64,000 nt of DNA from Planotetraspora kaengkrachanensis (GTDB lineage Bacteria > Actinomycetota > Actinomycetes > Streptosporangiales > Streptosporangiaceae). The stretch lies in assembly GCF_016862895.1 (NCBI RefSeq), contig NZ_BONV01000006.1:124001-188000 (forward strand), given 5' to 3'. Below are positions 41,794 through 55,308 of this stretch, in pieces; the first letter of the stretch is position 1; each line of letters opens with the position of its first letter. The notes beneath the pieces are model-generated. The model did no database searches and had not been told where the DNA came from. It saw only the letters and a list, made by a program, of their open reading frames with translations. Both the position numbers and the translations under genes were made by a program.

Positions 41794-42672
41794 TCAGTGG
41801 CGATGGTGGTTGTCGGGCTGGGCGGGGTCGCCCGGGTGTTCCAGCCCGGGCACCAGGCGGAGCCGGTACGCCCGGGCATGGTCGAGCCAGCGGACGAAGG
41901 CCAGGCGCCTGGCCGCGTCCAGCAGCAGGCCGCCCGGCTCGGGCGCGGTCGCGGGCTCCCGCGTGCCGAGGAGGGTCACGGTGAACCCGTCCACGGTCAC
42001 GGTCTGCCCCGGAGCGGCCTCGGCGAGGGCGGCCGCGAGCCGTGCCGGCAACGTGCCGGGGGCCGCGTCGAAGTCGCCGTCCGCCGTGGACAGCCGCCAC
42101 TCGGGCTCGGCGGGAGGCCGGGCCGTCGCAGCCGCGTAGGCCGCTGCCTGTTCCCCGGGCACCGTCGCATCCGCGGTCACCGCCGCGTAAACGGCCCGTA
42201 CGGCGCCGCTGCCCTCGAAGGCGGCGGCGGTGATCGAGCCGAGCTCGACGGCGGCGCGCTGGTCGAGCCGCACGGGCGCAGCCCCGCCGCCCACGTCGAG
42301 CCCCCGCTCGGCCGCCTCCGCCTCGCACAGCAGCTCGGTGAGCATGACCTGGGCGACCCAGCGCGTGAGCTGCCTGTCCTCGGCGCTGCCCGGCTCCGGC
42401 AGCGCGGAGGACCGCGGCCCGCCGCGCAGGGCGGCGAGCCGGCGGTCGAGGTCGGCACGCGGCAGCGGCCGGCCGTCGAGCCAGCCGAGCACGGGTCCGA
42501 CGCCAGGCGCGGACGGTGCACCGTCCACGGGGGACGCCGCGTGTGCGTGGTGGTGCCCATGCCCGTGCCCATGCCCATGGCCGACGGACGAGGCCGCAGC
42601 AGACACCGCAGCAGACACCGCAGCAGACACCGCAGGAGTCACCGCAGGAGTCACCGCGTGCGCCCGGCTCAT
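41794..42672 (-). CDS. GH38-coupled protein, SurA/parvulin-like with His-rich segment
   Basis: Protein of 292 residues with no family I can name firmly. A low-complexity start of Ala/Val/Thr/Ser repeats leads to HGHGHGHGHHHAHA at about residues 31-44. The following part, GWLDGRPLPRADLDRRLAAL then RWVAQVMLTELLCEAEAAER, resembles the SurA/PpiC N-terminal chaperone helices, and LPARLAAALAEAAPGQTVTV resembles the end of a parvulin domain, with the catalytic part missing. It starts with ATGA overlapping the stop of the zinc-dependent GH38 gene, so it is made with that enzyme. A folding helper or zinc donor for GH38 is my inference. Confidence 0.6.
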   Translation of the reverse strand: MSRAHAVTPAVTPAVSAAVSAAVSAAASSVGHGHGHGHGHHHAHAASPVDGAPSAPGVGPVLGWLDGRPLPRADLDRRLAALRGGPRSSALPEPGSAEDRQLTRWVAQVMLTELLCEAEAAERGLDVGGGAAPVRLDQRAAVELGSITAAAFEGSGAVRAVYAAVTADATVPGEQAAAYAAATARPPAEPEWRLSTADGDFDAAPGTLPARLAAALAEAAPGQTVTVDGFTVTLLGTREPATAPEPGGLLLDAARRLAFVRWLDHARAYRLRLVPGLEHPGDPAQPDNHHRH

Positions 42673-45600
42673 GGGGCCACGACCAGCTCGACCGTCGGGG
42701 CGTACTGGCAGCGGCCGAACCACATCACCTTGGCCAGCGCCCAGTAGGCGCCGGGGTCGGCGTCGCGCGGCACCGTCACGTCGAACGCCGCCGTGTCCGT
42801 CGCGCCCGCCGCCAGGGTGAACCCGCGTACCGGAGCGGTGACCGCGTCCCACGTCCCCCAGGGCGACACGACCTGGAGCTCACCGCGGATCTCGCCCCGG
42901 GTGCGGTTGGCGAGCGTCACTTCGAGCACCGCACGGCCACCGGGAGCGACCCGCACGGTCGTGGAGACGACGTCGACCGACAGGCCCGTGTCCCTTGCCG
43001 TCGCGGCCGTCGTCCCCTGAGCCGCCGCCCAGTCCTCGGGGATCTCGCCCGGCACGGGCAGAAAGGCGGAAAGGTCGCCCACCGCGATCGTCGCGACGTC
43101 CTCGACGTTCTGGCCGTCGTGGTCGATGCGGGCGGCGAGGAAGTACAGCCCCGGCTCGGCGCCGGCGTGCGGGGTCAGCGTCACCGGGAACCGCACGTGA
43201 CCGTCGGGCTCGAGCCGGTACGGGCGACGGGCCGGGATCACCGACCACCCCTCCGGGGCGATCAGCTCGGCTGTGCCCTCCACCGGCGCGTCCCGCAACT
43301 GCGAGGCGATCACCACGGACGCCTCGACGGGCTCGCCGTCCGTACGGAGCAGTCCGGGGGAGACCGCCACGGACACGGGCAGGTAGCCGATCGGGGCGGG
43401 ACCGCGGTTGTGCAGCCAGTACCGCGCGTGGACGGGCTGGGCGGCCTCCGCGGCCGGGCCCAGCGAGCCGTCGCCCCGGCGGGCCGAGCCGTCGAGACCG
43501 GCCGGCACGCCGATGACGGTCGCGACCTCGCTCCCGGAGAGCTCGACGGCCCCCGTGAGCGGCTCGCCCCTGCGCTCCAGCAGGTCGGCGGAGTACATTC
43601 CGCTGAAGGAGAGCGCCCCGTCGAGCGTCGCGGCCGACCCCTTGCCGGTCGACTCGACGAGGCGCAGCGTGACGCCGCGTGCCGGGTCCTGTGCTTCGGC
43701 GGAGCCGCGGGCGATGGGGTCGCCGCTGGGCTTCACCGTGCCGAGGAGCACCTCACGGGCGGGCTCGACCCGCACGTACGACCGGGTGGCGGGCAGCGGA
43801 CCCTCGTGGGCGCCGGCGACGCGGGCGTACAGCGGGTGGTTGAACTCCTGCCCCTGCGCGGGGAGGGTGATCGCGCGCCAGTCGCCGTCCCCGGAGACGA
43901 GCGCGTAGGAGAAGTCGTGCGACCAGTGCTGCAGCTGGAAGGACGTGCCGTCGGGGGCGGTGCGCTTGGGCGGGTCGATCCACACGCCCGAGGGCCAGCC
44001 GGTGCACGAGCGCATGAGCGACAGGTGCAGGGCGCCGGTCGGGTCCACGGCGAACCCGGGCAACCCGTACGTCAGCAGGGCGACCGTGTGATCGGTGAGG
44101 ACCTCGGACGCGGGGATCGGCCTCGGGGAGACCGCGGAGACGCGGGCGTCCGCGAGGTCGTCCGCGAGGGCGGCGGGATCGGTGACCACGAGGGACGGCA
44201 GCGCCCTCAGGTCGCGCAGATCGGCGTTGGGCTGCCACATCTCGTGCAGCGGCTTGTCCGCGGGGACCCAGACGCGGCCGTGCCTGGCCAGCGTGGCGGC
44301 GTAGTCCGCGCCGGCGCGCTCGAGCAGGTCGCGGGTGGCCTCGTTGGCCTCGGGCCCGCCGATCAGGACGCGGAAGTCCGGGAGGTTGGAGTCGACGTCG
44401 AGCCAGCCGTACCTGGCCCATTCCGCGCTCGCGGTCGTCGCGGTCACGCCGACCTTCGCCAGGGCGACCACCAGGTCGCGCGCGGCGGGGGCGTCGGCGA
44501 GCGACGGCACGACGACCTCGGCGACGCCGAGCGCGCGCTCACCCAGCGGCTCGCCGTCGGAGTCGGTCAGCGAGACGCGGGCGGTCGAGCTGAGCCCGAA
44601 CCAGGTGTTCGCCGGGTTGTCGAGCGTCCACGGCGCGTCGGCGACGTCCACGTCCGGCAGGGCGAAGCCCCGCCCGACGACGGCGTCGGCGACCTCGCTC
44701 ACGGGTAGCGCGCCCGGCAGGTCCACCGGGAACCGCACCCGCAGCAGCCGATCGGCGCCCGCGTGGTCGACGACGCGGGTGCCGCAGTCGACCCGGTCGA
44801 CGCCGTGCCACAACGTGACGGTCTGCCGATAGTTCAGGCCGTCGACGGTGCCGGTGACGACGAGGCGCGAGCCCAGCGGGCTGGTCTCGGCCCGGACGGT
44901 CGCGGGAGTGTCGGAGGAGCCGACGACCGGCCCGCGCGGCACCAGGTGCCACGGGCCCTCGCCGAAGTCGGGGTGCGCCGAGTACTCCTCGTACACCCGC
45001 AGTTCGTTGGCCACGTGACCGTCGCGGACCAGCTCGCGGCCTGACGCCTTGTCGTAGACGCTGCTCAGCCCGCCGCCCCTGGCGGCGTCCGCGCTCACGC
45101 GGTAGCGGGCGTTCTCGATGGTCCCGCCGTCGACCGGGGTCCACACGGGCTCCGCGGAGGACGCCCCCGGCAGGAGCCGCCACGTCCGCCAGCCCATGGC
45201 GGGCACGGCGTCGGCGAAGAACCGCAGGGTGCCCCGGTCGACCACGCACGCCACCTCCGCGCCCGTGTCGTCGAGGACGCGCCCGCCTTCGACGTCGTGC
45301 GGGAGACGTACGGTGACCAGGGCCGAGCGGTCGAACGACAGCGTGTTCGCGACGACGAGGGGGACGCCGTCGCCGGTCGTGTCGATCCGGCCCGCGAGGG
45401 CGTCGAGTGCGGTGTCCCGAACAGTCGCGGCGAGGTCGTACGCCTCCCGCCAGCCGGACAGCAGGTCGATGTAGACCTGGTCGGACTCCGACCCGGTGAT
45501 CGCGTCGTGGTGGGCGCCGTAGGCGAGCTGGCGCCACACCTTGTCGAGCGCCGCGCCTGGGTAGGCGCCGAGGCCCTCAAGCGAGGCGAGGGTGGCGAGC

Positions 45601-46877
45601 TTCTCCGCGTCGACGGCGGCGACCTCGCCCGCCCGCTGGGCCTGCTTCGTGTCGATGTACGACACGTCCTTGCCGGTATAGATGGGGTTCATGTCACGGG
45701 TCTGGGGGCTCGGCCGGCGGCCGGTCGCCTCCAGCTCGGCCCGGACGGCGTCGAGGAAGTCGCGCGGCGTGCCGCAGACGAACCTCGGCCACACGTACTT
45801 GGCCGCCCACGAACGGTGGATCTCGGTGACCCACTTGTTCGGCGGCGTGTAGTCGGTGCCAACAGGCAGCAGCAGGTTCCTCGTGGCCCCCACCGGCTTG
45901 AGCTTGGCGTACAGCTCGTAGACCGCGCGCTCGGCCGACTCCAGGTCGGGGGAGGAGTCCATCCACCAGCCGGCGGAGTAGTGGTGCGGCATGAAGTGGG
46001 TGAGCACCCCGCGGCCGGACGGCGAGATCCACTCGAACTCGCTCGGGAACTGCATGACCCGCGCGTCGTTCTTCGACTCGCGGAAGTTCTTCTGGATAGG
46101 CCCCCACTGGTGGAACGGCCCGCGCGCCCACGCGGAGCCGGTCAGCCCCGCGGCGTCCAGGTAGCCGGGGAACTGGGGGTCGTGGCCGAAGACGTCGAGC
46201 TGCCAGGCGGTCTGCGGGTCGCCGCCGAGAATGTCCCGCTGGTAGCCGACGCCGTAGACGATGTTGCGGATGGTCGTCTCCGCGCCGGTGAGGTTGGTGT
46301 TCGGCTCGTTGTAGGTGCCGCCGACCAGCTCGACCTGGCCGCGCTCCATCAGCACACGCAGGTCGGCCCGGCGCTCGGGGTGCAGGTCGAAGTACGGCTT
46401 CAGGTAGTCGATCTCCGCCAGCACGAACTTGTAGACCGGGTCGCGCAACGCCAGGTCGAGGTGCGCGTCGACGAGCGCGAAGCCGTTGCGCTCCCACAGC
46501 GGGCGCGTGGTCGCGTCGCCGGACAGCAGCTCCCACGGCGAGGTGTAGGCCGCCTGGGTGTTCCACCACACCGGGTCGTAGTGGAAGTGCGAGACCAGGA
46601 ACATCGTCCAGCCGGGCTCGGCCACGGTGACGGAGTCCTCGGTGCTCGCATCCCCGGCCGTCACGGTCACCGGCAGCTCGGCTCCGGCGGCCGCGCCGGC
46701 GATCTCGAGGGGGACCTCGACGACTCCCGTGCCGGTCGCCTCGCCCGAGACTCCCGGCCCCGCGACGGTGACGAGGACCGGCGGCCCCTCGATCGTCACG
46801 CGGAGCACCTGTCGCGGCGCGTCCTCCGTGCCCACGAACAGGTCGGTGGATTCCACGGCGGTGATGGTGACCGGCAC
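42669..46877 (-). CDS. GH38 alpha-mannosidase
   Basis: Very large alpha-mannosidase of 1402 residues. After about 90 residues of beta structure comes the catalytic domain with HFHYDPVWWNTQ (zinc-binding His and Asp), the nucleophile region QLDVFGHDPQFPGYLDAAG and FHQWGPIQKNFR. The middle beta domains and a C-terminal NEW3-like segment (PHAGAEPGLYFLAARID) follow. GH38 enzymes need zinc and trim alpha-mannose from N-glycans. No signal peptide, so it should act on imported glycans. GTG start with AAAGGA upstream. It follows the GH85 gene, from which a perfect hairpin separates it, and is coupled to the next gene. Confidence 0.93.
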   Translation of the reverse strand: MPVTITAVESTDLFVGTEDAPRQVLRVTIEGPPVLVTVAGPGVSGEATGTGVVEVPLEIAGAAAGAELPVTVTAGDASTEDSVTVAEPGWTMFLVSHFHYDPVWWNTQAAYTSPWELLSGDATTRPLWERNGFALVDAHLDLALRDPVYKFVLAEIDYLKPYFDLHPERRADLRVLMERGQVELVGGTYNEPNTNLTGAETTIRNIVYGVGYQRDILGGDPQTAWQLDVFGHDPQFPGYLDAAGLTGSAWARGPFHQWGPIQKNFRESKNDARVMQFPSEFEWISPSGRGVLTHFMPHHYSAGWWMDSSPDLESAERAVYELYAKLKPVGATRNLLLPVGTDYTPPNKWVTEIHRSWAAKYVWPRFVCGTPRDFLDAVRAELEATGRRPSPQTRDMNPIYTGKDVSYIDTKQAQRAGEVAAVDAEKLATLASLEGLGAYPGAALDKVWRQLAYGAHHDAITGSESDQVYIDLLSGWREAYDLAATVRDTALDALAGRIDTTGDGVPLVVANTLSFDRSALVTVRLPHDVEGGRVLDDTGAEVACVVDRGTLRFFADAVPAMGWRTWRLLPGASSAEPVWTPVDGGTIENARYRVSADAARGGGLSSVYDKASGRELVRDGHVANELRVYEEYSAHPDFGEGPWHLVPRGPVVGSSDTPATVRAETSPLGSRLVVTGTVDGLNYRQTVTLWHGVDRVDCGTRVVDHAGADRLLRVRFPVDLPGALPVSEVADAVVGRGFALPDVDVADAPWTLDNPANTWFGLSSTARVSLTDSDGEPLGERALGVAEVVVPSLADAPAARDLVVALAKVGVTATTASAEWARYGWLDVDSNLPDFRVLIGGPEANEATRDLLERAGADYAATLARHGRVWVPADKPLHEMWQPNADLRDLRALPSLVVTDPAALADDLADARVSAVSPRPIPASEVLTDHTVALLTYGLPGFAVDPTGALHLSLMRSCTGWPSGVWIDPPKRTAPDGTSFQLQHWSHDFSYALVSGDGDWRAITLPAQGQEFNHPLYARVAGAHEGPLPATRSYVRVEPAREVLLGTVKPSGDPIARGSAEAQDPARGVTLRLVESTGKGSAATLDGALSFSGMYSADLLERRGEPLTGAVELSGSEVATVIGVPAGLDGSARRGDGSLGPAAEAAQPVHARYWLHNRGPAPIGYLPVSVAVSPGLLRTDGEPVEASVVIASQLRDAPVEGTAELIAPEGWSVIPARRPYRLEPDGHVRFPVTLTPHAGAEPGLYFLAARIDHDGQNVEDVATIAVGDLSAFLPVPGEIPEDWAAAQGTTAATARDTGLSVDVVSTTVRVAPGGRAVLEVTLANRTRGEIRGELQVVSPWGTWDAVTAPVRGFTLAAGATDTAAFDVTVPRDADPGAYWALAKVMWFGRCQYAPTVELVVAP

Positions 46878-46902
46878 GTGCGTCAGTCCTTTCTATCGGT
46901 GA

Positions 46903-46931
46903 GCCGGCCGTCCCGGGTGGGGACGGCCGGC
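46903..46931 (-). terminator. hairpin between GH85 and GH38 genes
   Basis: A perfect 12-bp GC-rich stem (46903-46914 with 46920-46931) with a 5-base loop lies in the 68-bp junction of the leftward operon. No T-tract follows. It may act as a partial terminator or a processing site. Confidence 0.55.
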
Positions 46932-46945
46932 GGGTGGTGCGGGGG

Positions 46946-49390
46946 TCAGGCTCCCCAGGCCTCGAACTCGTTGATGCGGGCCGCGGGGTCACTGCCTTGG
47001 GTGGGCTTCGTGACGTTCAGGCGAACGTATCGCGCGCTGACCGACACGGGAGAGGTGGTGATCGCCGACGTGTTGCCGGTGACCGTCACAGCGGTGGTCC
47101 ACGCGTCGGAGGCCGAGGACCGGACCTGGATGGTGTAGTCGCTCGTGTTCGACGACGCCCCCTCGCCTCCCGCCTCGGCGTGCTTCACCACGAACCGGTT
47201 GATCGACCGGACCGATCCGAGGTCGACCTCCAGCCACTTGTCGGCGGTCAGCGCGCACCACTTGTCGGCCACGTTGCCGTTGACGGCCTTCTCCGGGCCC
47301 TCGCCGGCGTTGCACATGCTGGAGGCGGTCGCCGGCTGGTCGAGCGCGAGGTTCGTCTCGGTCGGCGGCGTCCCGGTCCAGGCCACCGTGGTCCGGGCGG
47401 CGTGTGAGCGGCCGTACTCCGTGGAGACCGCCTCGACCTCGATGGTCGTGGACGTCTCCGCGCCCGCCCGGTCGAGCCGCGGGACGAAGTAGACGGTGTT
47501 GGGGGTGGCCCCGAGGTAGGTGCGGGTGCCGTCGGCGTTGCGACGGTACACGTCGTAGTGGTGCACCGAACCGTGCGCGGACGGCTTCCAGGACAGGCGC
47601 AGCGACTTGCGGGTGGCCGTCACGTCCGTCGTGCCCAGCACGGTCGCCTTCCTCGGCGGGGCCGGGCGCTCCACCGAGCCGTCGTACACCGCGATCTGGC
47701 CGACCCGCACGTCGTAGGAGTCGACGGTCGCGGGCGCGGACGCCTGCAGGCCGATCTGGGCGATCGTCCGGCCGGCGAACTTCGACAGGTCCAGCGTCCT
47801 GCGCTCCCACCCGGTGCCGCTCGTCGGGCCGAGGTCGAGCGTGGTGAACTTCGTCGGCGCGTCGGCGAAGGCGATCGCCGCCTTCAGGTTGGTCGGCCCC
47901 GCGGCGGGGGTCTTCACCACGACCGACAGCTTGGTGCTGCGGGCGACCGGCAGCTTGGTCTCATAGAGCCGGACCGTGTTGGCGGCGTCCAGCCTGCCGG
48001 TGAGGCGCAGCGACGAGCCGCCCTCGTAGGCGTCGCCGAAGTCGAGGGACGGGGTGAGCCTGGAGCCGTCGGACGTCACGAGCCAGCGGTAGGTCGGCAG
48101 CACGTCCTGCAGGGAGAGGTTGTTCCAGCCGCCGGTGCGCACCCGCACGCCGCCGACGTTGTAGAAGTCGCCCTGCCCGGTGTTGAAGCCGGTGACGAAC
48201 GGCTTGGCCGTGATCGGCGTCGACTCGGCGACGTAGGTGGCCAGGCCCTTCCACGACGAGGTGGTGGAGGTGTTCGAGGGGTCGGCGTTGGCGCCCACCC
48301 AGTAGCGGGAGTCCCTGTTGTAGAAGTCGGCCCGGCTGGTGGACGACTTCCACGTCCACTCGGGGCGGTAGAGGCCGAGCGAGGTCACGTGCGGCTGCCC
48401 CGCGGGGAACACCGCGTCCCAGGAGACGAAGGTGTTGTATCCGTTGGCCTCGGTGTCGATGCCCGAGTACAGGTCGTACTCACTGCGGCCGAGCGCCTGG
48501 GCGGTGGACCGCGAGGAGGACAGCCCGGAGGCCGACCACCAGAAGTTGAGGAACATCGAGTCCGACACCTTGCGCGGGTCGGACAGGAACGCGTCGTTCT
48601 CCGGGGTGAGCGCGTTCTGCCAGTTGACCTGGCCGCCCTCGGTCATCGCGTCGTACCACATGAAGCCGACCGACGGGCTCCTGCCCTTCGCGTACTTGAC
48701 GAGGTCGCGCATCGACGTCGCCAGCGCGGTGTCACCGCCCTCGGTCTCCTGGTTGATGAACCAGCCGTCGAACCCGTAGTACTTCGCGACCTCGACGAGC
48801 TTGTCGGCGACGGGGAAGCGCGATCCCGACTTCTGGGTGAAGTCCTTGACCCACTGCAACTGCCCGCCGTACACGCCGGGCGGGAAGAAGACCGTGCCGT
48901 AGACCTTGACGCCGTTGCGGTGCGCGGCGTCGATGACCGTGGCGTTCGGCGCGAGGATCAGGCCCTCGCTCGCCGATCCGCCCCAGAAGACCAGTGTGTC
49001 GACGTACTGCCAGTAGCCGAACGCGTAGTAGTTGGCGTCGAGCGCCCCCTGGGAGGGGTTGTTCGAGGTGGGCGCGAACGAGACCAGCGACGCCACGCGG
49101 CCCTCTCCCGCGCGGGCGTTCGCGTTGGCCTTCAGCGACGGGTCGCCGACCCGCGGCCGCAGGGGCACCTGGGATCGGTTGAACTTCGCGTCGGGATCGT
49201 CGGCCGGGTTCCAGTTGAGGATCGTGTTCGGGTACCAGTAGGAGGCGTACGGCTGGACACCGCTGCCGCCGGGCGCCGCGGGACCCTGGTGGGTCGTGGA
49301 GCGGGCGTCGGCGGGCCCGGTACCCAGAGCGGTACCGAGTGCGGTTGCCGTCACGGCCGCGCAGAGCACGGCCAGCAGGCGTCGTCGCAT
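46946..49390 (-). CDS. GH85 endo-beta-N-acetylglucosaminidase, secreted, with C-terminal CBM32-like domain
   Basis: Secreted enzyme of 814 residues that cuts between the two core GlcNAc residues of N-glycans. The N-terminus (MRRRLLAVLCAAVTATALG and Ala-rich stretch ending ADARS) is a Sec signal. The GH85 barrel is recognisable by QPYASYWYPNTILNW, LVSFAPTSNNPSQG, YVDTLVFWGGSASEGLI and GFDGWFINQETE, which holds the catalytic Glu and assisting Asn. After an Fn3-like segment, the last 140 residues are a discoidin/CBM32 type domain (ATASSMCNAGEGPEKAVNG). It is the only enzyme of the three loci with an export signal, so it should make the glycans that the importer takes up. Confidence 0.93.
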   Translation of the reverse strand: MRRRLLAVLCAAVTATALGTALGTGPADARSTTHQGPAAPGGSGVQPYASYWYPNTILNWNPADDPDAKFNRSQVPLRPRVGDPSLKANANARAGEGRVASLVSFAPTSNNPSQGALDANYYAFGYWQYVDTLVFWGGSASEGLILAPNATVIDAAHRNGVKVYGTVFFPPGVYGGQLQWVKDFTQKSGSRFPVADKLVEVAKYYGFDGWFINQETEGGDTALATSMRDLVKYAKGRSPSVGFMWYDAMTEGGQVNWQNALTPENDAFLSDPRKVSDSMFLNFWWSASGLSSSRSTAQALGRSEYDLYSGIDTEANGYNTFVSWDAVFPAGQPHVTSLGLYRPEWTWKSSTSRADFYNRDSRYWVGANADPSNTSTTSSWKGLATYVAESTPITAKPFVTGFNTGQGDFYNVGGVRVRTGGWNNLSLQDVLPTYRWLVTSDGSRLTPSLDFGDAYEGGSSLRLTGRLDAANTVRLYETKLPVARSTKLSVVVKTPAAGPTNLKAAIAFADAPTKFTTLDLGPTSGTGWERRTLDLSKFAGRTIAQIGLQASAPATVDSYDVRVGQIAVYDGSVERPAPPRKATVLGTTDVTATRKSLRLSWKPSAHGSVHHYDVYRRNADGTRTYLGATPNTVYFVPRLDRAGAETSTTIEVEAVSTEYGRSHAARTTVAWTGTPPTETNLALDQPATASSMCNAGEGPEKAVNGNVADKWCALTADKWLEVDLGSVRSINRFVVKHAEAGGEGASSNTSDYTIQVRSSASDAWTTAVTVTGNTSAITTSPVSVSARYVRLNVTKPTQGSDPAARINEFEAWGA

Positions 49391-49430
49391 GTGGGGGGTT
49401 CCTTCCCGATGGCGGGGACGGGGTGTAGCC

Positions 49431-49465
49431 GCCCTGGTCCCGCCGGGTCGCGGCGGGACCAGGGC
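49431..49465 (-). terminator. hairpin between GH5 and GH85 genes
   Basis: A perfect 14-bp stem (49431-49444 with 49452-49465) with a 7-base loop in the 93-bp junction. Same type as those at 46903 and 53400. Confidence 0.6.
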
Positions 49466-49483
49466 CTTACCGCTGGTCGTGGA

Positions 49484-50722
49484 TCACGCCGTGGTCAGGA
49501 CGGTGTCGATCCCGCGAGCGGTGAGGTACTCGGAGTCGGCCGCGCGGTCGGCGCCGACGATCGCGAGCGGGCCGGCCTGGCGCAGGCGGACCCACTCGCT
49601 GTGGAAGGGGCTGCCCGGCGCGACCTCTCCCCGCCGCTCGGGCTCGGTGCGCAGATCGACGTCGCACACCAGGGCGGGCCGCGACGAGAGGGCCGGGCGG
49701 CTCGAGCGCCGCTCGCGGACGATCGCGGCGAGTTCCCGGGTGGCGGGCTTGATCTGGTGGTCGACGGTGAACAGGCCCAGGTCGTACTCGCGGTCGGGGA
49801 AGTCGGCCAGGCTCCGGTCGAGGTCGTGCGAGCACCACCAGGTGACGCCCCACAGGGCGGGGTTGCGGGTGACCGCGTCGAGCATGTCCCGGACGAAGGC
49901 CGGCGCGTCGTCCTCGCCGATGTCCGGGCGGGGCGCGCCCACTTCCTGCAGCCAGACCGGCCGGGCCGGGTCCGACGCGGTCGCCGCCGCCAGTTCCACG
50001 AGGTAGTCCTCGTGGGAGACGGTGGCGGGGCCGAGGGGGCCGTCGATGGCCGAGACGCCGTTGAACACCCAGGAGTGCACCGTCGTCAGGTCGCCGAGGT
50101 CGACGTTGTCGGCCGCGGCGAACGGGTGCCCGGGGTCGTACCACGTGCCGTCGTACAGCGAGTACAGGCTGAGCAGCCGCGGCGCCGCGGTGCGGGCGAC
50201 CTCGATCAGTTCGGCGGCCCACTGCGAGGACGCCTCCAGGGTGGTGGCGTTCGAGGGCCACAGGTTGTTGACCTCGTTGCCCAGCGTCACGGCGAAGACG
50301 TTGGCGCGGGTCGCGACGGCCCGGGTGAGCCGGTCGACGTACTCCGCGATGCCGTCGCGCACTGCCGCGTCGGTGAACAGACTCCGCTGGTGCCAGGTCA
50401 GCACCCACGACGGCAGGAAGTCGAAGCTGGACAGGTGGCCCTGGAGCAGGTCGACCGAGACGTCCAGGTCGAACTCGGCGGCCACGTCGATCAGCGTGAG
50501 CAGGTCGTCGACGCCACGTTGCCGGATCAGCGTCCGGTTGGGCTGGATCCACGGCCAGATGGGGAACACCCGGACGTGGTCGAGCCCGATTTCCGCCAGG
50601 TCGGCGAAGTCGCGCCTGGCCGCGTCGGCCGAGAAGTCGAGCCAGCTGTAGAACCAGCCCGACGAGGGCACGTAGTTCGCTCCGAAACGCAGAGTGGATG
50701 GGCCTGGTGGTTGCGGTGTCAC
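49484..50722 (-). CDS. GH5-type beta-mannosidase-like glycosidase
   Basis: Clan GH-A enzyme of 412 residues with a TIM barrel. The acid/base is in TLGNEVNNLW and the nucleophile in VWLQEVGAP, the two glutamates of GH5. It begins FGANYVPSSGWFYSWLDF and has a C-terminal beta extension. In N-glycan loci of bifidobacteria, a GH5_18 enzyme splits Man-beta-1,4-GlcNAc from the glycan core; this gene sits in the same context with GH85 and GH38, so that role is likely but the subfamily is an inference. No signal peptide. GGAGGACGA precedes the GTG at 50722. It is the first gene of the leftward arm of locus C. Confidence 0.82.
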   Translation of the reverse strand: MTPQPPGPSTLRFGANYVPSSGWFYSWLDFSADAARRDFADLAEIGLDHVRVFPIWPWIQPNRTLIRQRGVDDLLTLIDVAAEFDLDVSVDLLQGHLSSFDFLPSWVLTWHQRSLFTDAAVRDGIAEYVDRLTRAVATRANVFAVTLGNEVNNLWPSNATTLEASSQWAAELIEVARTAAPRLLSLYSLYDGTWYDPGHPFAAADNVDLGDLTTVHSWVFNGVSAIDGPLGPATVSHEDYLVELAAATASDPARPVWLQEVGAPRPDIGEDDAPAFVRDMLDAVTRNPALWGVTWWCSHDLDRSLADFPDREYDLGLFTVDHQIKPATRELAAIVRERRSSRPALSSRPALVCDVDLRTEPERRGEVAPGSPFHSEWVRLRQAGPLAIVGADRAADSEYLTARGIDTVLTTA

Positions 50723-50779
50723 TCGTCCTCCGGCTGCGGTGGCGCCAGGCAGGGATCGCCAGGCGCTTCGACCGCCCGC

Positions 50780-50809
50780 AGCCTAAACCGTTTTAGCTGT
50801 CCCTGCCAA
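50780..50809 (-). promoter_or_regulatory. promoter and LacI operator of GH5-GH85-GH38 operon
   Basis: Reading leftward: TTGGCA (50804-50809), an 18-bp spacer and TAGGCT (50780-50785). The 14-bp LacI-type dyad CTAAAACGGTTTAG (50783-50796) overlaps the -10 and the stop codon of the LacI gene. A near-copy stands in front of the ABC operon at 52011. Confidence 0.65.
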
Positions 50810-51824
50810 GGGCCGGGGGCGCCGTGCTCTCCCTGACCGCCAGTCGCGGCGTCGGAGTCCTGCGGTCCCTTTGCAGGCCCGGTTCGGCGACGATGGCCAG
50901 CAGCGTCTCGGCGACCTCGGTGCCGAGCGCGAACGTGTCACGCGTCAGCGCGGTCAGCGCCGGATGCACGATGCGGGTGAGCACCGAGTCGTCGAAGGCG
51001 ACGATCGACAGGTCGCCGGGGACCGCCACCCCCATCTCGCCGGCGACCCCCAGCCCGGCGACGGCCATCAGGTCGCTGTCGTACACGATCGCCGTCGGCC
51101 GCCGGGGCCGTGACAGCAGCATGCGGGTGGTGGCGGCGCCCTCGGCGTCGCTGAAGTCGGTGGGCAGCGAGGAGACCTCCGCCAGGCCGAGCCGCCGCGC
51201 GGAGTCGCGCAGCGCGCGCATGCGGCGCTGAGTGTGCTGGAAGGCGGGAAGGCCGGCGACGTGGGCGATGCGCCGGTGGCCGAGCGCGGCGAGGTAGTCG
51301 ACGATCGACAACATCGCCTCGCGGTCGTCCGCCCACACGCTGGACAGCGAGCCGTGGCGGCCGGGGCCGCCGAGCACCACCGCGGGCACGCCGAGGCCCT
51401 CGACCACGTCGACGCGCGTGTCCCTGACCTTGAGGTCGACCAGGATGAACCCGTCGACCCGGTGCTCGGAGGCCCAGCGCCGGTACACCTCGATCTCGGC
51501 CTCGGTGTCCTCGACGACGAGCAGTTCCAGCGCGACGGAGTGGGCCGACAGCCCGGCCTGCAGCCCGGACAGCAGTTGGGCGAAGAACGGCTCGACTCCG
51601 AGGGTGCGCGCCGGGCGGGCGATGACGAGCCCGACGGCACCGGCGCGGGCGCCGCCCAGGGCACGGGCCGCGGTGTGCGGCCGCCAGTTCATCTCCTCGG
51701 CGACCTTCAGGATGCGAGCTCTGGTGGCCTCGCTGACGCCGGGACGGCCGTTGAGCGCGAACGACACCGCACCCTTGGAGACCCCGACACGGCGGGCGAT
51801 GTCCTCGATGGTCGGTCGCGCCAC
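50793..51824 (-). CDS. LacI-family transcriptional regulator (locus C)
   Basis: Repressor of 343 residues with the helix-turn-helix PTIEDIARRVGVSKGAVSFA and the effector domain from about residue 60. GTG 51824 is chosen for the AAAGG upstream and because the helix-turn-helix begins at once. It lies between the GH5-GH85-GH38 operon and the divergent ABC operon, and matching operators stand in front of each, so it almost certainly coordinates N-glycan release, uptake and breakdown. The inducer is likely a mannose-containing oligosaccharide (inferred). Confidence 0.94.
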   Translation of the reverse strand: MARPTIEDIARRVGVSKGAVSFALNGRPGVSEATRARILKVAEEMNWRPHTAARALGGARAGAVGLVIARPARTLGVEPFFAQLLSGLQAGLSAHSVALELLVVEDTEAEIEVYRRWASEHRVDGFILVDLKVRDTRVDVVEGLGVPAVVLGGPGRHGSLSSVWADDREAMLSIVDYLAALGHRRIAHVAGLPAFQHTQRRMRALRDSARRLGLAEVSSLPTDFSDAEGAATTRMLLSRPRRPTAIVYDSDLMAVAGLGVAGEMGVAVPGDLSIVAFDDSVLTRIVHPALTALTRDTFALGTEVAETLLAIVAEPGLQRDRRTPTPRLAVRESTAPPALGRDS

Positions 51825-51972
51825 GGCTGTGCCTTTCTTCGTTCGTGCTGGTCGGCACGTTGCAACAGGAGCCCCCGACAGGTGCATTATCGCCAGGTGC
51901 ACGCCGCTGCGGGGCCCCGCGCGGGAGCGCGTCGCGCCGATTCCCGCGTCTGTCACGGGTTCGCGTCATCTC

Positions 51973-52001
51973 TTGACACCGAAGTCTAGTGGGGGGATAG
52001 T
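51973..52001 (+). promoter_or_regulatory. promoter of locus C ABC operon
   Basis: TTGACA (51973-51978), a 17-bp spacer and GATAGT (51996-52001): the strongest sigma-70-type promoter in the window. GGGGATAGTCCCC forms a small dyad over the -10. Confidence 0.75.
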
Positions 52002-52010
52002 CCCCAGTCA

Positions 52011-52024
52011 CTAGAGCGGTTTAG
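52011..52024. promoter_or_regulatory. LacI operator of ABC operon
   Basis: CTAGAGCGGTTTAG matches the dyad before the GH5 operon (CTAAAACGGTTTAG) at 12 of 14 bases and lies just after the predicted transcription start, where bound LacI would block the polymerase. Confidence 0.7.
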
Positions 52025-52102
52025 TAGTCGGGTCACAGCGGACGGGGCCGCCGGGCGTCGGCTCAAAAATTCCGGATCGCTCAGCGCATGGCAGGAGAAG
52101 TG

Positions 52103-53386
52103 ATGCGAATTCATGGGATAAGGCTGGTCGCCGCAGCGGCGGGGCTGGCGGCGCTCGCGGGATGCGGGCTCGGAGGGGCCGAAACGTCGAGCACCCCGAC
52201 CGCCAACGCCTCGGGCGCGGTGACCGGCAAGGTGAGCCTGCAGACCTGGGCGCTCAAGCCCAAGTTCACCGACTACGTGCAGGGCGTCATCGACTCGTTC
52301 GAGAAGAAGTACCCCGGCACCGAGGTGGAATGGCTCGACCAGCCCGGCGACGGCTACGCCGAGAAGGTGCTGAGCCAGGCGTCGGGCGGCAGCCTGCCCG
52401 ACGTGTCGAACCTGCCGCCGGACTTCGCGCTGCCGCTGGTCAAGCAGGGCCTGCTGCTCGACGTGGCCAAGGCCGACCCGAAGGTGACCGAGGAGTACGT
52501 CCCCGGAGGCATCGACGGCTACAAGTACGCCGGCTACGAGGGCGTCTACGGCTACCCCTGGTACCTGAACACCGACGTCAACTACTGGAACTCCGAGCTG
52601 CTCTCGAAGTACGGGCTCGACGCGAAGACGCCGCCGACCACGCTCGACGAGCTCATCACCGCGGCGAAGACGGTGAAGGACAAGTCCGGCGGCAAGGTCT
52701 TCCTCATGAGCCGCAAGCCGACGCTCATCGACCTCACCAACGCCGGCGTCCCGATCATGTCGCCGGACGGCAAGAGCTTCACCTTCAACACCCCCGAGGC
52801 CGCCGCGATCCTCGACAAGTACCGCGACGCCTTCAAGGACAAGTTGATGCCGCGTGACGTGCTGACGACCAAGTACGCCGGCAACACGCAGCTGTTCAAC
52901 TCCCAGACGGTGGCGTGGACCACCGCGGGCGGCAACTACATCACCAGCCTCGCCGCCGAGGGCAACCCGACGCTCGCGCCCAAGGTCGTCCCCTCGCAGG
53001 CGTTCGGCACCCCGCCGCTCTACGTCCAGGGACTGTCGATCTCCAAGTCGACCAAGAACCTCCCGGCCGCGATCGCGCTGGCCCGCTGGGTCACCAGCGC
53101 GGAGAACCAGGCCGCCTTCGCGCACCTGGTCAACATCTTCCCGAGCACCAAGGCCTCGGCCGACGACCCGTTCTTCAGCAAGAGCGACGGCACGAACTCC
53201 GGCGACGCCAAGGTGATCGCGTTCAACTCGCTCTCCACGGCGAAGATCCTGCAGCCCGTCCAGGTCACGCAGGCGATGGCCGACTTCGTCGACCAGCAGT
53301 TCGCCCTCGCGATCAACGGTGAGGAGCCGTCGCAGAAGGCGCTCGACGACGCCGTCGCCAAGTGCAACCAGCTTCTCAACGGCTGA
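52103..53386 (+). CDS. sugar ABC transporter substrate-binding lipoprotein (locus C)
   Basis: Binding protein of 427 residues. A short lipoprotein signal (MRIHGIRLVAAAAGLAALAG) ends in the lipobox LAGC. The mature part is a family 1 sugar-binding protein (VSLQTWALKPKFTDYVQGVI onward). GGAG stands close before the ATG at 52103; an ATG at 52088 is also in frame. Context suggests it binds the high-mannose glycan released by GH85. A strong hairpin follows the stop, which would keep binding-protein levels above permease levels. Confidence 0.93.
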   Translation: MRIHGIRLVAAAAGLAALAGCGLGGAETSSTPTANASGAVTGKVSLQTWALKPKFTDYVQGVIDSFEKKYPGTEVEWLDQPGDGYAEKVLSQASGGSLPDVSNLPPDFALPLVKQGLLLDVAKADPKVTEEYVPGGIDGYKYAGYEGVYGYPWYLNTDVNYWNSELLSKYGLDAKTPPTTLDELITAAKTVKDKSGGKVFLMSRKPTLIDLTNAGVPIMSPDGKSFTFNTPEAAAILDKYRDAFKDKLMPRDVLTTKYAGNTQLFNSQTVAWTTAGGNYITSLAAEGNPTLAPKVVPSQAFGTPPLYVQGLSISKSTKNLPAAIALARWVTSAENQAAFAHLVNIFPSTKASADDPFFSKSDGTNSGDAKVIAFNSLSTAKILQPVQVTQAMADFVDQQFALAINGEEPSQKALDDAVAKCNQLLNG

Positions 53387-53399
53387 CGTCACGCTCGCC

Positions 53400-53440
53400 C
53401 GCGTACGGGGACCCGCCTCATCAGGGGGTCCCCGTACGCG
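53400..53440 (+). terminator. hairpin after binding-protein gene
   Basis: A perfect 15-bp stem (53400-53414 with 53426-53440) with an 11-base loop between binding-protein and permease genes. Such elements often stabilise the binding-protein message and limit read-through. Confidence 0.65.
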
Positions 53441-53456
53441 GCGCGCAGGAGATCAA

Positions 53457-54329
53457 ATGACACACAAGCGCTGGTTCACCCCATGGCTGCTCATCGCCCC
53501 CGCGGCGGTGTGGCTCGTGGTCTTCAACGCCGTACCGGCGATCAACACGCTGATCCTCTCGTTCACCAATGCCAGGCCCCTGGGCGGCGGGCAGTTCATC
53601 GGGTTCGGCAACTACACCCGCATGCTCGACGACCAGCAGCTCGTGGACGCGCTGATCAACAGCATCGTCTACATGGTGGTCTGCGTTCCGCTGCTGACGC
53701 TGCTGCCGCTCCTGCTCGCGGTGCTGGTCGAGAAGAAGCTGCGCGGGATCGCGTTCTTCCGCATCGCGTTCTACACCCCCGTGATCGCCTCGGCGGTCGT
53801 GGTCGCCCTCATCTGGGGCTGGCTGCTCAACGACCGGGGAGTCATCAACGGGATGGCGGAGGGGCTCGGGTTCCTGAGCGGCCCGTTGCCGTTCCTCACC
53901 GATCGCTGGCTGCTGCTGTTCAGCGCGATCAGCCTGACCGTGTGGAAGGGCCTCGGGTACTACATGATCATTTACATGTCGGCGCTCGGCAACGTGAGCC
54001 GTGAGCTCCACGAGGCCGCCGCCGTCGACGGGGCCGGGCCCGTCCGCCGGTTCTTCTCCGTCACCGTGCCGGGCGTGCGCAACACGATGCTGCTCATCTC
54101 GGTGCTGATCTCCGTCTTCGCGCTGCGGGTCTTCTCCGAGCTGTACATCCTGTCGAACGGCACCGGCGGGCCTGGAGGCCGCGACATGTCGCTCGTGATG
54201 CTCATCCAGTTGTACGGCCAGGGCCTGACCGGGCACCTCGGGTACGCCTCCGCGCTGAGCGTCCTGCTGTTCGTCGTCACGGTCGGCCCGATGTTGTTCC
54301 TGGCGCGGCTCAACCGGAAGGAGTCGTAG
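53457..54329 (+). CDS. sugar ABC transporter permease, MalF type (locus C)
   Basis: Permease of 290 residues with six helices and the docking loop EAAAVDGAGPVRRFFSVTVP. AGGAG is well placed before the ATG at 53457. It is followed 2 bp later by the MalG-type gene. Confidence 0.94.
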   Translation: MTHKRWFTPWLLIAPAAVWLVVFNAVPAINTLILSFTNARPLGGGQFIGFGNYTRMLDDQQLVDALINSIVYMVVCVPLLTLLPLLLAVLVEKKLRGIAFFRIAFYTPVIASAVVVALIWGWLLNDRGVINGMAEGLGFLSGPLPFLTDRWLLLFSAISLTVWKGLGYYMIIYMSALGNVSRELHEAAAVDGAGPVRRFFSVTVPGVRNTMLLISVLISVFALRVFSELYILSNGTGGPGGRDMSLVMLIQLYGQGLTGHLGYASALSVLLFVVTVGPMLFLARLNRKES

Positions 54330-54331
54330 CG

Positions 54332-55183
54332 ATGGCCCGGAGTGGTCGCGGGTTCAACACGATCTCGCCGGCGGAGAAGGTGCTCCGATACGCCCTTCTC
54401 CTGGTCGTGCTGGTCATCACGGTGGGCCCGTTCCTGTGGCAGCTCTCCACGTCGCTCAAGGGCGTCACCGAGGACGTCTTCACACAGACGCCCACCTTCG
54501 TCCCCCAGCACCCGACGTTGTCGAACTACACCGAGGTCGCCAAGACGATCCCCGTCTGGGCGTACGCCGGCAACTCGCTGATCGTCGCCGTGCTCGTCGT
54601 CGCGGGGAACGCGATCGGGGCGACGCTCGCCGGGTACGCGCTGGCCAAGCTGCGCTTCCGGGGCTCGAAGCTGGTGCTCGGGCTCTTCCTCGCGACGCTG
54701 ATCCTGCCGAGCGAGGTCACGATCATCTCCCAGTACGTCATCGTGCGCGGGCTCGGCTTCTCCGACTCGCTGATCGGTGTCGCGCTGCCGGGGGCGATCC
54801 AGATGCTCAACGTGCTGCTGATGCGCACGGCGTTCCTGTCGATCCCGGCGGACGTCGACGCCGCCGCGATCATCGACGGGGCAACCGCGTGGCAGCGCCT
54901 GATCCGCATCGGCCTGCCGAACGTCAAGGGCATGCTGAGCGTCGTGGTGATCTTCTCGTTCATCTTCGCGTGGGACGACTTCCTCTGGCCGCTGATCGTG
55001 CTCACCGATCCGGACAAGTACACGCTCACGGTCGGGTTGCAGTACCTCAACGGCACCTTCAGCTCCAACCCCCGCCTCATCGCCGCGGGCACCATGATCG
55101 CCTTCCTGCCGATCGTGGTGATCTTCGCCCTGCTTCAGCGGTTCTTCTTCAAGGGCGTCGACGCGGGCGCGATCAAGGGCTGA
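54332..55183 (+). CDS. sugar ABC transporter permease, MalG type (locus C)
   Basis: Permease of 283 residues with six helices and the EAA-type loop DAAAIIDGATAWQRLIRIGL. GGAAGGAG stands before the ATG. Last gene of the locus C importer; a long inverted repeat follows. As in loci A and B there is no ATPase gene. Confidence 0.94.
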   Translation: MARSGRGFNTISPAEKVLRYALLLVVLVITVGPFLWQLSTSLKGVTEDVFTQTPTFVPQHPTLSNYTEVAKTIPVWAYAGNSLIVAVLVVAGNAIGATLAGYALAKLRFRGSKLVLGLFLATLILPSEVTIISQYVIVRGLGFSDSLIGVALPGAIQMLNVLLMRTAFLSIPADVDAAAIIDGATAWQRLIRIGLPNVKGMLSVVVIFSFIFAWDDFLWPLIVLTDPDKYTLTVGLQYLNGTFSSNPRLIAAGTMIAFLPIVVIFALLQRFFFKGVDAGAIKG

Positions 55184-55188
55184 GACCT

Positions 55189-55253
55189 GCCGTACGGCGA
55201 CCGCGTCCCGGTCGGGCCCGCCCTTCGCCCTCCCGGGCCGGTCGCCGTACGGC
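55189..55253 (+). terminator. long inverted repeat after locus C importer
   Basis: GCCGTACGGCGACC (55189-55202) pairs perfectly with GGTCGCCGTACGGC (55240-55253) around a 37-base loop that can itself fold (GGGCCCG/CGGGCC). It closes the rightward operon and is likely its terminator. Confidence 0.6.
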
Positions 55254-55308
55254 TCGACGCTCGACTGGCCGGGGTCCCACATGAGGGTCCCACGGCGCCT
55301 CCGCGTTC

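What the first reader, a model, noticed from the sequence alone, without database searches (positions are those of the whole stretch)
41794..55183. Compact N-glycan harvest locus: GH85, GH38, GH5, ABC importer and one LacI regulator
Seen: signal peptide only on GH85, none on GH38 and GH5, and matching LacI-type dyads before both arms. Known: GH85 frees N-glycans, GH38 trims alpha-mannose, GH5_18 in bifidobacteria cuts Man-beta-1,4-GlcNAc. Inferred: a complete route from outside cleavage to intracellular monosaccharides under one regulator, in a filamentous actinomycete where such loci are little described.
Basis: partly seen in the sequence, partly recalled or inferred. Interest (0 to 1): 0.72.

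Follow-up and report, generated by a model that had tools for sequence, protein, structure and literature searches.

The report
N-glycan locus with dedicated mannosidase helper
A soil actinomycete carries a one-switch gene set that appears to clip sugar trees off glycoproteins, import them and dismantle them inside the cell, and one of its sugar-cutting enzymes almost always travels with a small chaperone-like protein whose role is unstudied.

Summary
The window (by its matches, a Planotetraspora) has one LacI gene between two divergent arms: GH5-GH85-GH38-DUF7158 and SBP-permease-permease. The GH5 is a GH5_18 (ScGH5_18, E 1.8e-119). The two dyads are the only sites within one mismatch of CTAAANCGNTTTAG in the 8.77 Mb genome. 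The motif flanks LacI in 73 of 73 LacI-bearing relatives, so 'one regulator' is well supported.

'Complete route' is not shown. The genome has no GH125 match, no ABC ATPase is among the eight locus proteins scanned, and the binding protein's ligand cannot be read. Such GH38/GH5_18/transporter loci are published (C. acnes, PMC6160142) and common here, with swappable GH85/GH18 and two GH38 types.

DUF7158 genes sit directly behind one GH38 clade: 33 of 34 in 44 named genomes, behind none of 78 other GH38 matches, and 11 of 11 strong hits elsewhere. The family is SurA/PPIC-like (SurA E 1.6e-11) and ends in an invariant tail, EHPxDx4DxxH[RK]H. I read it as a client-specific maturation factor, unproven.

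The parts
41794..42672 (-). DUF7158 protein (292 aa): variable His-rich N-terminus, SurA-like N region, degenerate parvulin-like middle, conserved C-terminal tail EHPGDPAQPDNHHRH; proposed GH38-specific maturation factor
   Evidence: PF23716 E 7.2e-16; linkage to GH38 clade; SurA match of family profile; tail
42669..46877 (-). GH38 alpha-mannosidase, 1402 aa, no signal peptide seen, NEW3-type C-terminal domains; member of the DUF7158-linked clade
   Evidence: PF01074 E 4e-52, PF09261, PF07748, PF10633; tree
46946..49390 (-). Secreted GH85 endo-beta-N-acetylglucosaminidase with C-terminal CBM32-type domain
   Evidence: PF03644 E 1.6e-86; PDB 2vtf E 3.3e-141
49484..50722 (-). GH5_18 exo-beta-1,4-mannosidase (predicted Man-beta-1,4-GlcNAc cleavage), cytoplasmic
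   Evidence: PDB 7lr7 ScGH5_18 E 1.8e-119; 6gvb E 9.6e-90
50783..50796 (.). Operator CTAAACCGTTTTAG before the enzyme arm
50793..51824 (-). LacI-family regulator (GTG start chosen by me)
   Evidence: PF00356, PF13377 on 50793-51827; start codon
52011..52024 (.). Operator CTAGAGCGGTTTAG before the transporter arm
52088..53386 (+). ABC solute-binding lipoprotein
   Evidence: PF01547 E 1.8e-35; lipobox; model pLDDT 93
53457..54329 (+). ABC permease 1 (ATG start chosen by me; the scan used the longer ORF from 53319)
   Evidence: PF00528; start codon
54332..55183 (+). ABC permease 2
   Evidence: PF00528

Best explanation
A LacI-controlled catabolic locus for N-glycans, most likely of high-mannose type. 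Shown by sequence: secreted GH85 with a carbohydrate-binding domain; SBP plus two permeases; cytoplasmic-looking GH38 and GH5_18; two operators beside one LacI; a DUF7158 gene whose start overlaps the GH38 stop. Inferred: GH85 cuts the chitobiose core outside; the ABC importer (using a MalK/MsiK-type ATPase from elsewhere) brings in Man(n)GlcNAc; GH38 strips alpha-mannose; GH5_18 splits Man-beta-1,4-GlcNAc; LacI is released by a product or intermediate. Also inferred: DUF7158, a SurA/PPIC-type protein reduced in its isomerase part, helps this 1400-residue GH38 fold or receive its metal, much as NifM serves NifH, using the invariant C-terminal E/H/D/D/H/H tail.
For: GH5_18 assignment. GH85 is closest to 2vtf/3fhq (475 and 474 bits) and further from 3gdb (337.5) and EndoD 2w91 (305). 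Operators unique in the genome at 1 mismatch or fewer; in LacI flanks at 2 mismatches or fewer in 73 of 73 loci with LacI, on both sides in 58 of 73; a reversed control pattern in 1 of 73 and three other control patterns in 0 of 73. LacI plus ABC in 71 of 80 loci. DUF7158 linkage: 33 of 34 genes, 33 of 34 GH38s of the band, 0 of 78 other GH38 matches, plus 11 of 11 strong hits. Family is SurA/PPIC-like: L178 member Rotamase_2 E 7.7e-15, over its cut-off; SurA chains E 1.6e-11 with the 12-row profile. Tail invariant in 12 of 12 diverse members.
Against: No activity data. The window's own DUF7158 matches Rotamase_2 only at E 0.091. Its model is poor (pLDDT 60.5) and no Foldseek hit is below 0.001. 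One clade GH38 (G779, a Lentzea) has no DUF7158 behind it. In L006 the start overlapping the GH38 stop is out of the DUF7158 frame. SBP specificity is unreadable. 14 of 80 loci have LacI and ABC genes with no GH38, GH85 or GH18 detected within the flanks, so the core may serve a wider or different sugar.
Confidence: 0.7

Rival explanations
1. The locus feeds on alpha-mannan or mannoprotein fragments of fungi and yeasts in general; N-glycan cores are only one part of the food.
For: Six GH38 and two GH92 in the genome; 14 of 80 loci keep LacI, GH5_18 and the transporter without a detected endo-enzyme or GH38 nearby.
Against: GH85 or GH18 endo-enzymes lie in 42 of 80 loci (31 GH85, 11 GH18), and the GH5_18 of C. 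acnes is reported to act on the beta-mannosyl bond of the N-glycan core (PMC6160142, passages).
Confidence: 0.2
2. DUF7158 is not a folding factor but a subunit or inhibitor that uses its tail to occupy or tune the GH38 active site.
For: Near 1:1 linkage with one GH38 clade, overlapping start and stop codons, invariant charged tail that could reach a metal.
Against: The SurA/PPIC resemblance points to folding; nothing here shows binding.
Confidence: 0.25
3. DUF7158 is a second malonyl-CoA:ACP transacylase (FabD2), as the mycobacterial gene Rv0649 is annotated; its place beside GH38 is incidental.
For: Rv0649 is called FabD2, a malonyl CoA-ACP transacylase (PMC2651862, passage).
Against: No acyltransferase family is listed at E up to 5 for the window protein or five relatives; SurA/PPIC matches instead. 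That Rv0649 belongs to DUF7158 is recalled, not tested.
Confidence: 0.02

Closest known systems
Cutibacterium acnes GH38/GH5_18 N-glycan degradation locus (PMC6160142, passages)
   Same: Adjacent signal-less GH38 and GH5_18, with SBP, permease and a regulator; proposed cytoplasmic core trimming
   Different: C. acnes strain 266 also has GH20 and GH18 in the locus, and an ATP-binding gene is among the genes of that paper's locus figure; here a secreted GH85, a 1402-aa GH38 and a DUF7158 partner
Streptococcus pneumoniae N-glycan system (EndoD, NgtS-P1-P2, GH38/GH125/GH92 locus; PMC5215778, passages)
   Same: GH85 endo-enzyme, SBP plus two permeases for Man(n)GlcNAc, a GH38
   Different: Genes at three places in S. 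pneumoniae; no GH125 match in this genome; SBP not recognisably NgtS; a GH5_18 is present here
NifM, maturation factor of nitrogenase Fe protein (PMC12691677, abstract)
   Same: PpiC-type protein serving one client
   Different: 24 bits against a cut-off of 168.2 for the one of six DUF7158 proteins scanned that matches it; in NifM the PpiC domain is the predominant part, whereas only one of the six DUF7158 proteins passes a PpiC-type cut-off; distinctive E/H/D tail
SurA/PrsA-type chaperones
   Same: Family profile matches SurA chains, E 1.6e-11
   Different: No secretion signal seen in the window protein; adjacent single client; parvulin part degenerate in the window protein

Membership tests
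GH5 subfamily 18 | Closest to solved GH5_18 enzymes over the full length | tested here: met
   ScGH5_18 7lr7 E 1.8e-119, residues 4-410. Of nine hits at E below 1e-80, five are named GH5_18, 6gvb is GH5_18 by PMC6160142, two are BlMan5B (GH5_18 by recall) and 9y4v is titled only Glycosyl hydrolase. dbCAN not available
GH5 subfamily 18 | Catalytic glutamates in place | tested here: met
   GNE and QEVG present and aligned with ScGH5_18; role recalled
GH5 subfamily 18 | Cuts Man-beta-1,4-GlcNAc | not testable with these tools
   needs enzyme assay
GH85 | Pfam GH85 domain and secretion | tested here: met
   E 1.6e-86; signal-like N-terminus by hydropathy
GH38 | N, middle and C-terminal GH38 domains | tested here: met
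C. acnes-type GH38/GH5_18 locus | Signal-less GH38 and GH5_18 with SBP, permease and regulator | tested here: met
C. acnes-type GH38/GH5_18 locus | GH20 in the locus | not tested
   no GH20 among the eight proteins scanned; the genome was not searched for GH20
S. pneumoniae N-glycan system | GH125 partner of GH38 | tested here: not met
   0 matches in the genome
S. pneumoniae N-glycan system | NgtS-like binding protein | tested here: not met
   5SWA/5SWB are not named among the 45 PDB sequences at E up to 0.001 nor in the 50 Foldseek rows shown of 1684
DUF7158 (PF23716) | 38-position N-terminal model over its cut-off | tested here: met
   58 bits against 27
SurA/PPIC superfamily | Profile match | tested here: inconclusive
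   family profile A2 matches SurA at 1.6e-11 and L178 passes Rotamase_2; the window protein alone only 0.091
NifM | NCBIfam TIGR02933 cut-off 168.2 bits | tested here: not met
   24 bits for L178 and no match for the window protein
FabD transacylase | Acyltransferase domain | tested here: not met
   no such family listed at E up to 5

The most novel reading that the evidence does not exclude
DUF7158 is a client-dedicated maturation factor (SurA/NifM-like body, E-H-P-x-D-x4-D-x-x-H-[RK]-H metal-ligand-like tail) for one clade of about 1400-residue actinobacterial GH38 alpha-mannosidases. It moves with its client between unrelated sugar loci. Mycobacterial 'FabD2' beside the Rv0648 mannosidase would then be a misnamed member (membership recalled, not tested).
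Probability: 0.5. Interest if true: 0.7.

Novelty: new variant of a known kind. Interest (0 to 1): 0.52.

Why it matters
The locus gives a compact, testable N-glycan uptake route in soil actinomycetes, with an operator pair unique in the genome that makes the regulon easy to test. If the DUF7158 reading is right, some glycoside hydrolases need their own folding or metal-loading helper. That could explain poor expression of such mannosidases without their neighbour and would correct a wrong annotation.

Tried and rejected
Rejected: FabD reading of DUF7158. Rejected: NgtS orthology of the SBP. The SBP model (pLDDT 93) finds only generic oligosaccharide and related binders in the rows shown, so no ligand is claimed. 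The AF2 model of DUF7158 (240 of 292 residues, 13 rows) was low (pLDDT 60.5) and its Foldseek hits weak (best SurA E 8.3e-3), so it is only side evidence. The 38-position Pfam model gives many weak hits in the phylum (32 of 396 genomes at E up to 0.001, 12 over cut-off). Of the genomes with only weak hits, two (G515, G623) were checked, and there GH38 is not adjacent; the others were not checked. The GH38 score band (170-205 bits) was chosen after seeing the table; the tree groups such proteins without using the band, on a sample of 74.

Rows dropped before counts: one search left out GH38 segments under 220 residues or with X; one search left out two duplicates (L112, L173). Alignment A1 left out L021, whose DUF7158 frame holds an N run. 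The best 80 of 132 relatives were kept by the tool. Absences in loci are lower bounds because flanks are 10 kb or end with the contig, and the bit-score thresholds are mine.
Full report
WHAT IS THERE. The window carries two divergent arms around one LacI gene (50793-51824, minus). The minus arm is GH5 (49484-50722), GH85 (46946-49390), GH38 (42669-46877) and a DUF7158 gene (41794-42672). The plus arm is a solute-binding lipoprotein (52088-53386) and two permeases (53457-54329, 54332-55183). The genome is most likely a Planotetraspora. Three same-genus GH85 loci (L083, L088, L096) give the same GH85 match values as the named loci of P. phitsanulokensis, P. mira and P. thailandica (L002, L003, L005).

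GH5 SUBFAMILY. It does not. phmmer against the PDB gives ScGH5_18 (E 1.8e-119), BlGH5_18, BlMan5B (5e-90) and the C. acnes exo-beta-1,4-mannosidase 6gvb (9.6e-90). The next kind, an endo-beta-mannanase, is at 1.1e-13. Pfam and NCBIfam have no match for it at E up to 0.001. dbCAN was not available.

GH85 AND GH38. GH85 is closest to 2vtf/3fhq (about 475 bits) and less close to 3gdb (337.5) and EndoD 2w91 (305). From recall, the first is the Arthrobacter EndoA, which prefers high-mannose glycans. GH38 is far from any solved GH38 (best 65.9 bits), but has all three GH38 domains plus NEW3-type domains.

REGULATION. CTAAACCGTTTTAG (50783-50796) and CTAGAGCGGTTTAG (52011-52024) are the only two sites in the 8.77 Mb genome with at most one mismatch to CTAAANCGNTTTAG. 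At up to two mismatches there are 21 per strand, fewer than the 44 of the reversed control, so the looser hits mean nothing. Among the 80 best GH5_18 loci (of 132 relatives), 73 have the LacI at my threshold. All 73 have the motif at 2 mismatches or fewer beside it, 58 on both sides. A reversed pattern occurs in 1 of 73 and three other control patterns in 0 of 73. Outside the LacI flanks only 3 matches occur in loci that total 1.588 Mb; two of these (L041, L043) are in loci cut off right beside GH5, where no LacI could be seen. The relatives are not independent of each other, but LacI proteins down to 54% identity keep the motif.

CONSERVATION AND SWAPS. Of 80 loci, 71 have LacI plus SBP and both permeases. 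GH85 is found in 31, a GH18 with a CBM32-type domain in 11, the window's GH38 type in 20, and a second GH38 type of about 1000 residues in 36 (domain identities from the sample). The set LacI-ABC-GH5_18-GH85-GH38 of the window's type is in 17 of 80. In Salinispora, GH85 and GH38 stand behind the transporter genes instead, and in P. silvatica (L004) GH85 is missing between GH5 and GH38. Among genomes of the order, GH85 is in 38 of 345.

HOW COMPLETE IS THE ROUTE. The own genome has six GH38, two GH92 and no GH125 match. Four OB_MalK matches lie elsewhere, three over the cut-off, best at C10. The SBP model is good (pLDDT 93), but the 50 rows shown are generic oligosaccharide and related binders (best 6wpm, E 3.5e-26). 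A full path to monosaccharides is plausible, not shown.

THE GENE WITHOUT A ROLE. DUF7158 was searched in two ways. With Pfam's model in 396 genomes of the phylum, 11 genes in 10 genomes score 50 bits or more: two in the own genome and nine in one other genus. All 11 have a GH38 domain about 3 kb upstream on the same strand. With alignment A1 in 44 named genomes there are 34 genes; 33 have a GH38 within 6 kb upstream on the same strand. Of 112 GH38 matches, 34 fall in one score band, of which 33 have the partner, and none of the other 78 does. The odd DUF7158 is a short remnant (profile positions 148-233) with a stop, whose tail has decayed (L177). The odd GH38 (G779, Lentzea) is followed by a gene that I read by eye as aldose-epimerase-like. 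A maximum-likelihood tree of 74 GH38 domains puts all 36 partnered ones in one supported group of 37 (97/98) whose other member is the Lentzea one; the label needs 2 changes and 0 of 500 shuffles do as well. Some long branches there are unsure, and near-copies inflate the clustering.

TRANSLATIONAL OVERLAP. In the window the DUF7158 ATG overlaps the GH38 TGA. In 12 of 13 loci looked at, the GH38 stop is part of ATGA or GTGA. The overlapping start is in the DUF7158 frame in 11 of these 12; in L006 it is not. The thirteenth, L016, is unreadable because of N.

WHAT DUF7158 IS. In 12 diverse members the invariant residues lie in the N-terminal part (residues 26-93 of the 240 aligned) and in the last 35, above all the tail E-H-P-x-D-x4-D-x-x-H-[RK]-H at the very C-terminus. 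Member L178 matches Rotamase_2 over its cut-off (7.7e-15); L179 matches SurA_N_2 below its cut-off (1.5e-4). NifM is the best NCBIfam hit of L178 (3e-5, far below its cut-off). A profile of the 12 matches SurA chains at 1.6e-11. The parvulin part is weak in the window protein (0.091) and not listed for L167 and L170. I infer that the family keeps a client-binding body and a metal-ligand-like tail while isomerase activity is dispensable. The own genome has a second pair at C50, in another ABC/LacI locus with a GH95-like gene, so the pair seems to belong together whatever the sugar.

LITERATURE. Seen as passages: the C. acnes locus (PMC6160142); the S. pneumoniae system (PMC5215778); a review saying that Rv0648 was shown to have alpha-mannosidase activity with no further information reported (PMC8035080); Rv0649 named FabD2 (PMC2651862); Streptomyces and Lentzea CAZyme lists naming GH5_18 and GH85, with no locus in the passages seen (PMC11475409, PMC9120177); and a GWAS mention of Rv0648 (PMC10188106). 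Seen as abstract: NifM genetics (PMC12691677). 'DUF7158' is in 0 papers of the library, and no paper in it holds both Rv0648 and Rv0649. The library lacks most subscription journals. A Bifidobacterium longum high-mannose pathway paper that I recall was not seen.

VERDICT. The locus is a real and well regulated variant of a known kind, common among the relatives looked at rather than rare. The GH38-DUF7158 pairing is the part worth following.

Noticed in passing
window 46878-46945, 49391-49483 (-); 53387-53456, 55184-55262 (+): Strong RNA hairpins follow GH85, GH5, SBP and the last permease (z -4.15, -3.62, -6.79, -5.66). The internal ones may set unequal gene dosage, for example more SBP than permease; conservation not checked.
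   Followed up: partly
L171 (own genome C50:66000-82000): Second locus with LacI, SBP, permease, GH38 with the same domains, DUF7158 and a GH95-like gene; the GH38 stop lies in GTGA there too.
   Followed up: partly
window 42535-42672: N-terminus of DUF7158 is a variable Ala/Val repeat and His-Gly run (GHGHGHGHHHAHA). Many relatives have His-rich starts of different length, and L004 and L005 have little or none.
   Followed up: partly
L060, L062, L040: GH5_18 beside the shorter GH38 without this LacI or ABC importer detected; L060 has a sodium:solute symporter nearby, perhaps another uptake route.
   Followed up: no
L066:13027-17388: Janibacter GH5_18 lies near a GH101 endo-alpha-N-acetylgalactosaminidase, an O-glycan enzyme.
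   Followed up: no
L007: Sphaerisporangium fuscum keeps GH5_18, LacI and two operator-like sites but no detected transporter, GH85 or GH38 within the locus.
   Followed up: no
L177 (G773:C22): Remnant of DUF7158 with no GH38 match on that contig, in Nonomuraea rhodomycinica; consistent with loss of the pair.
   Followed up: no
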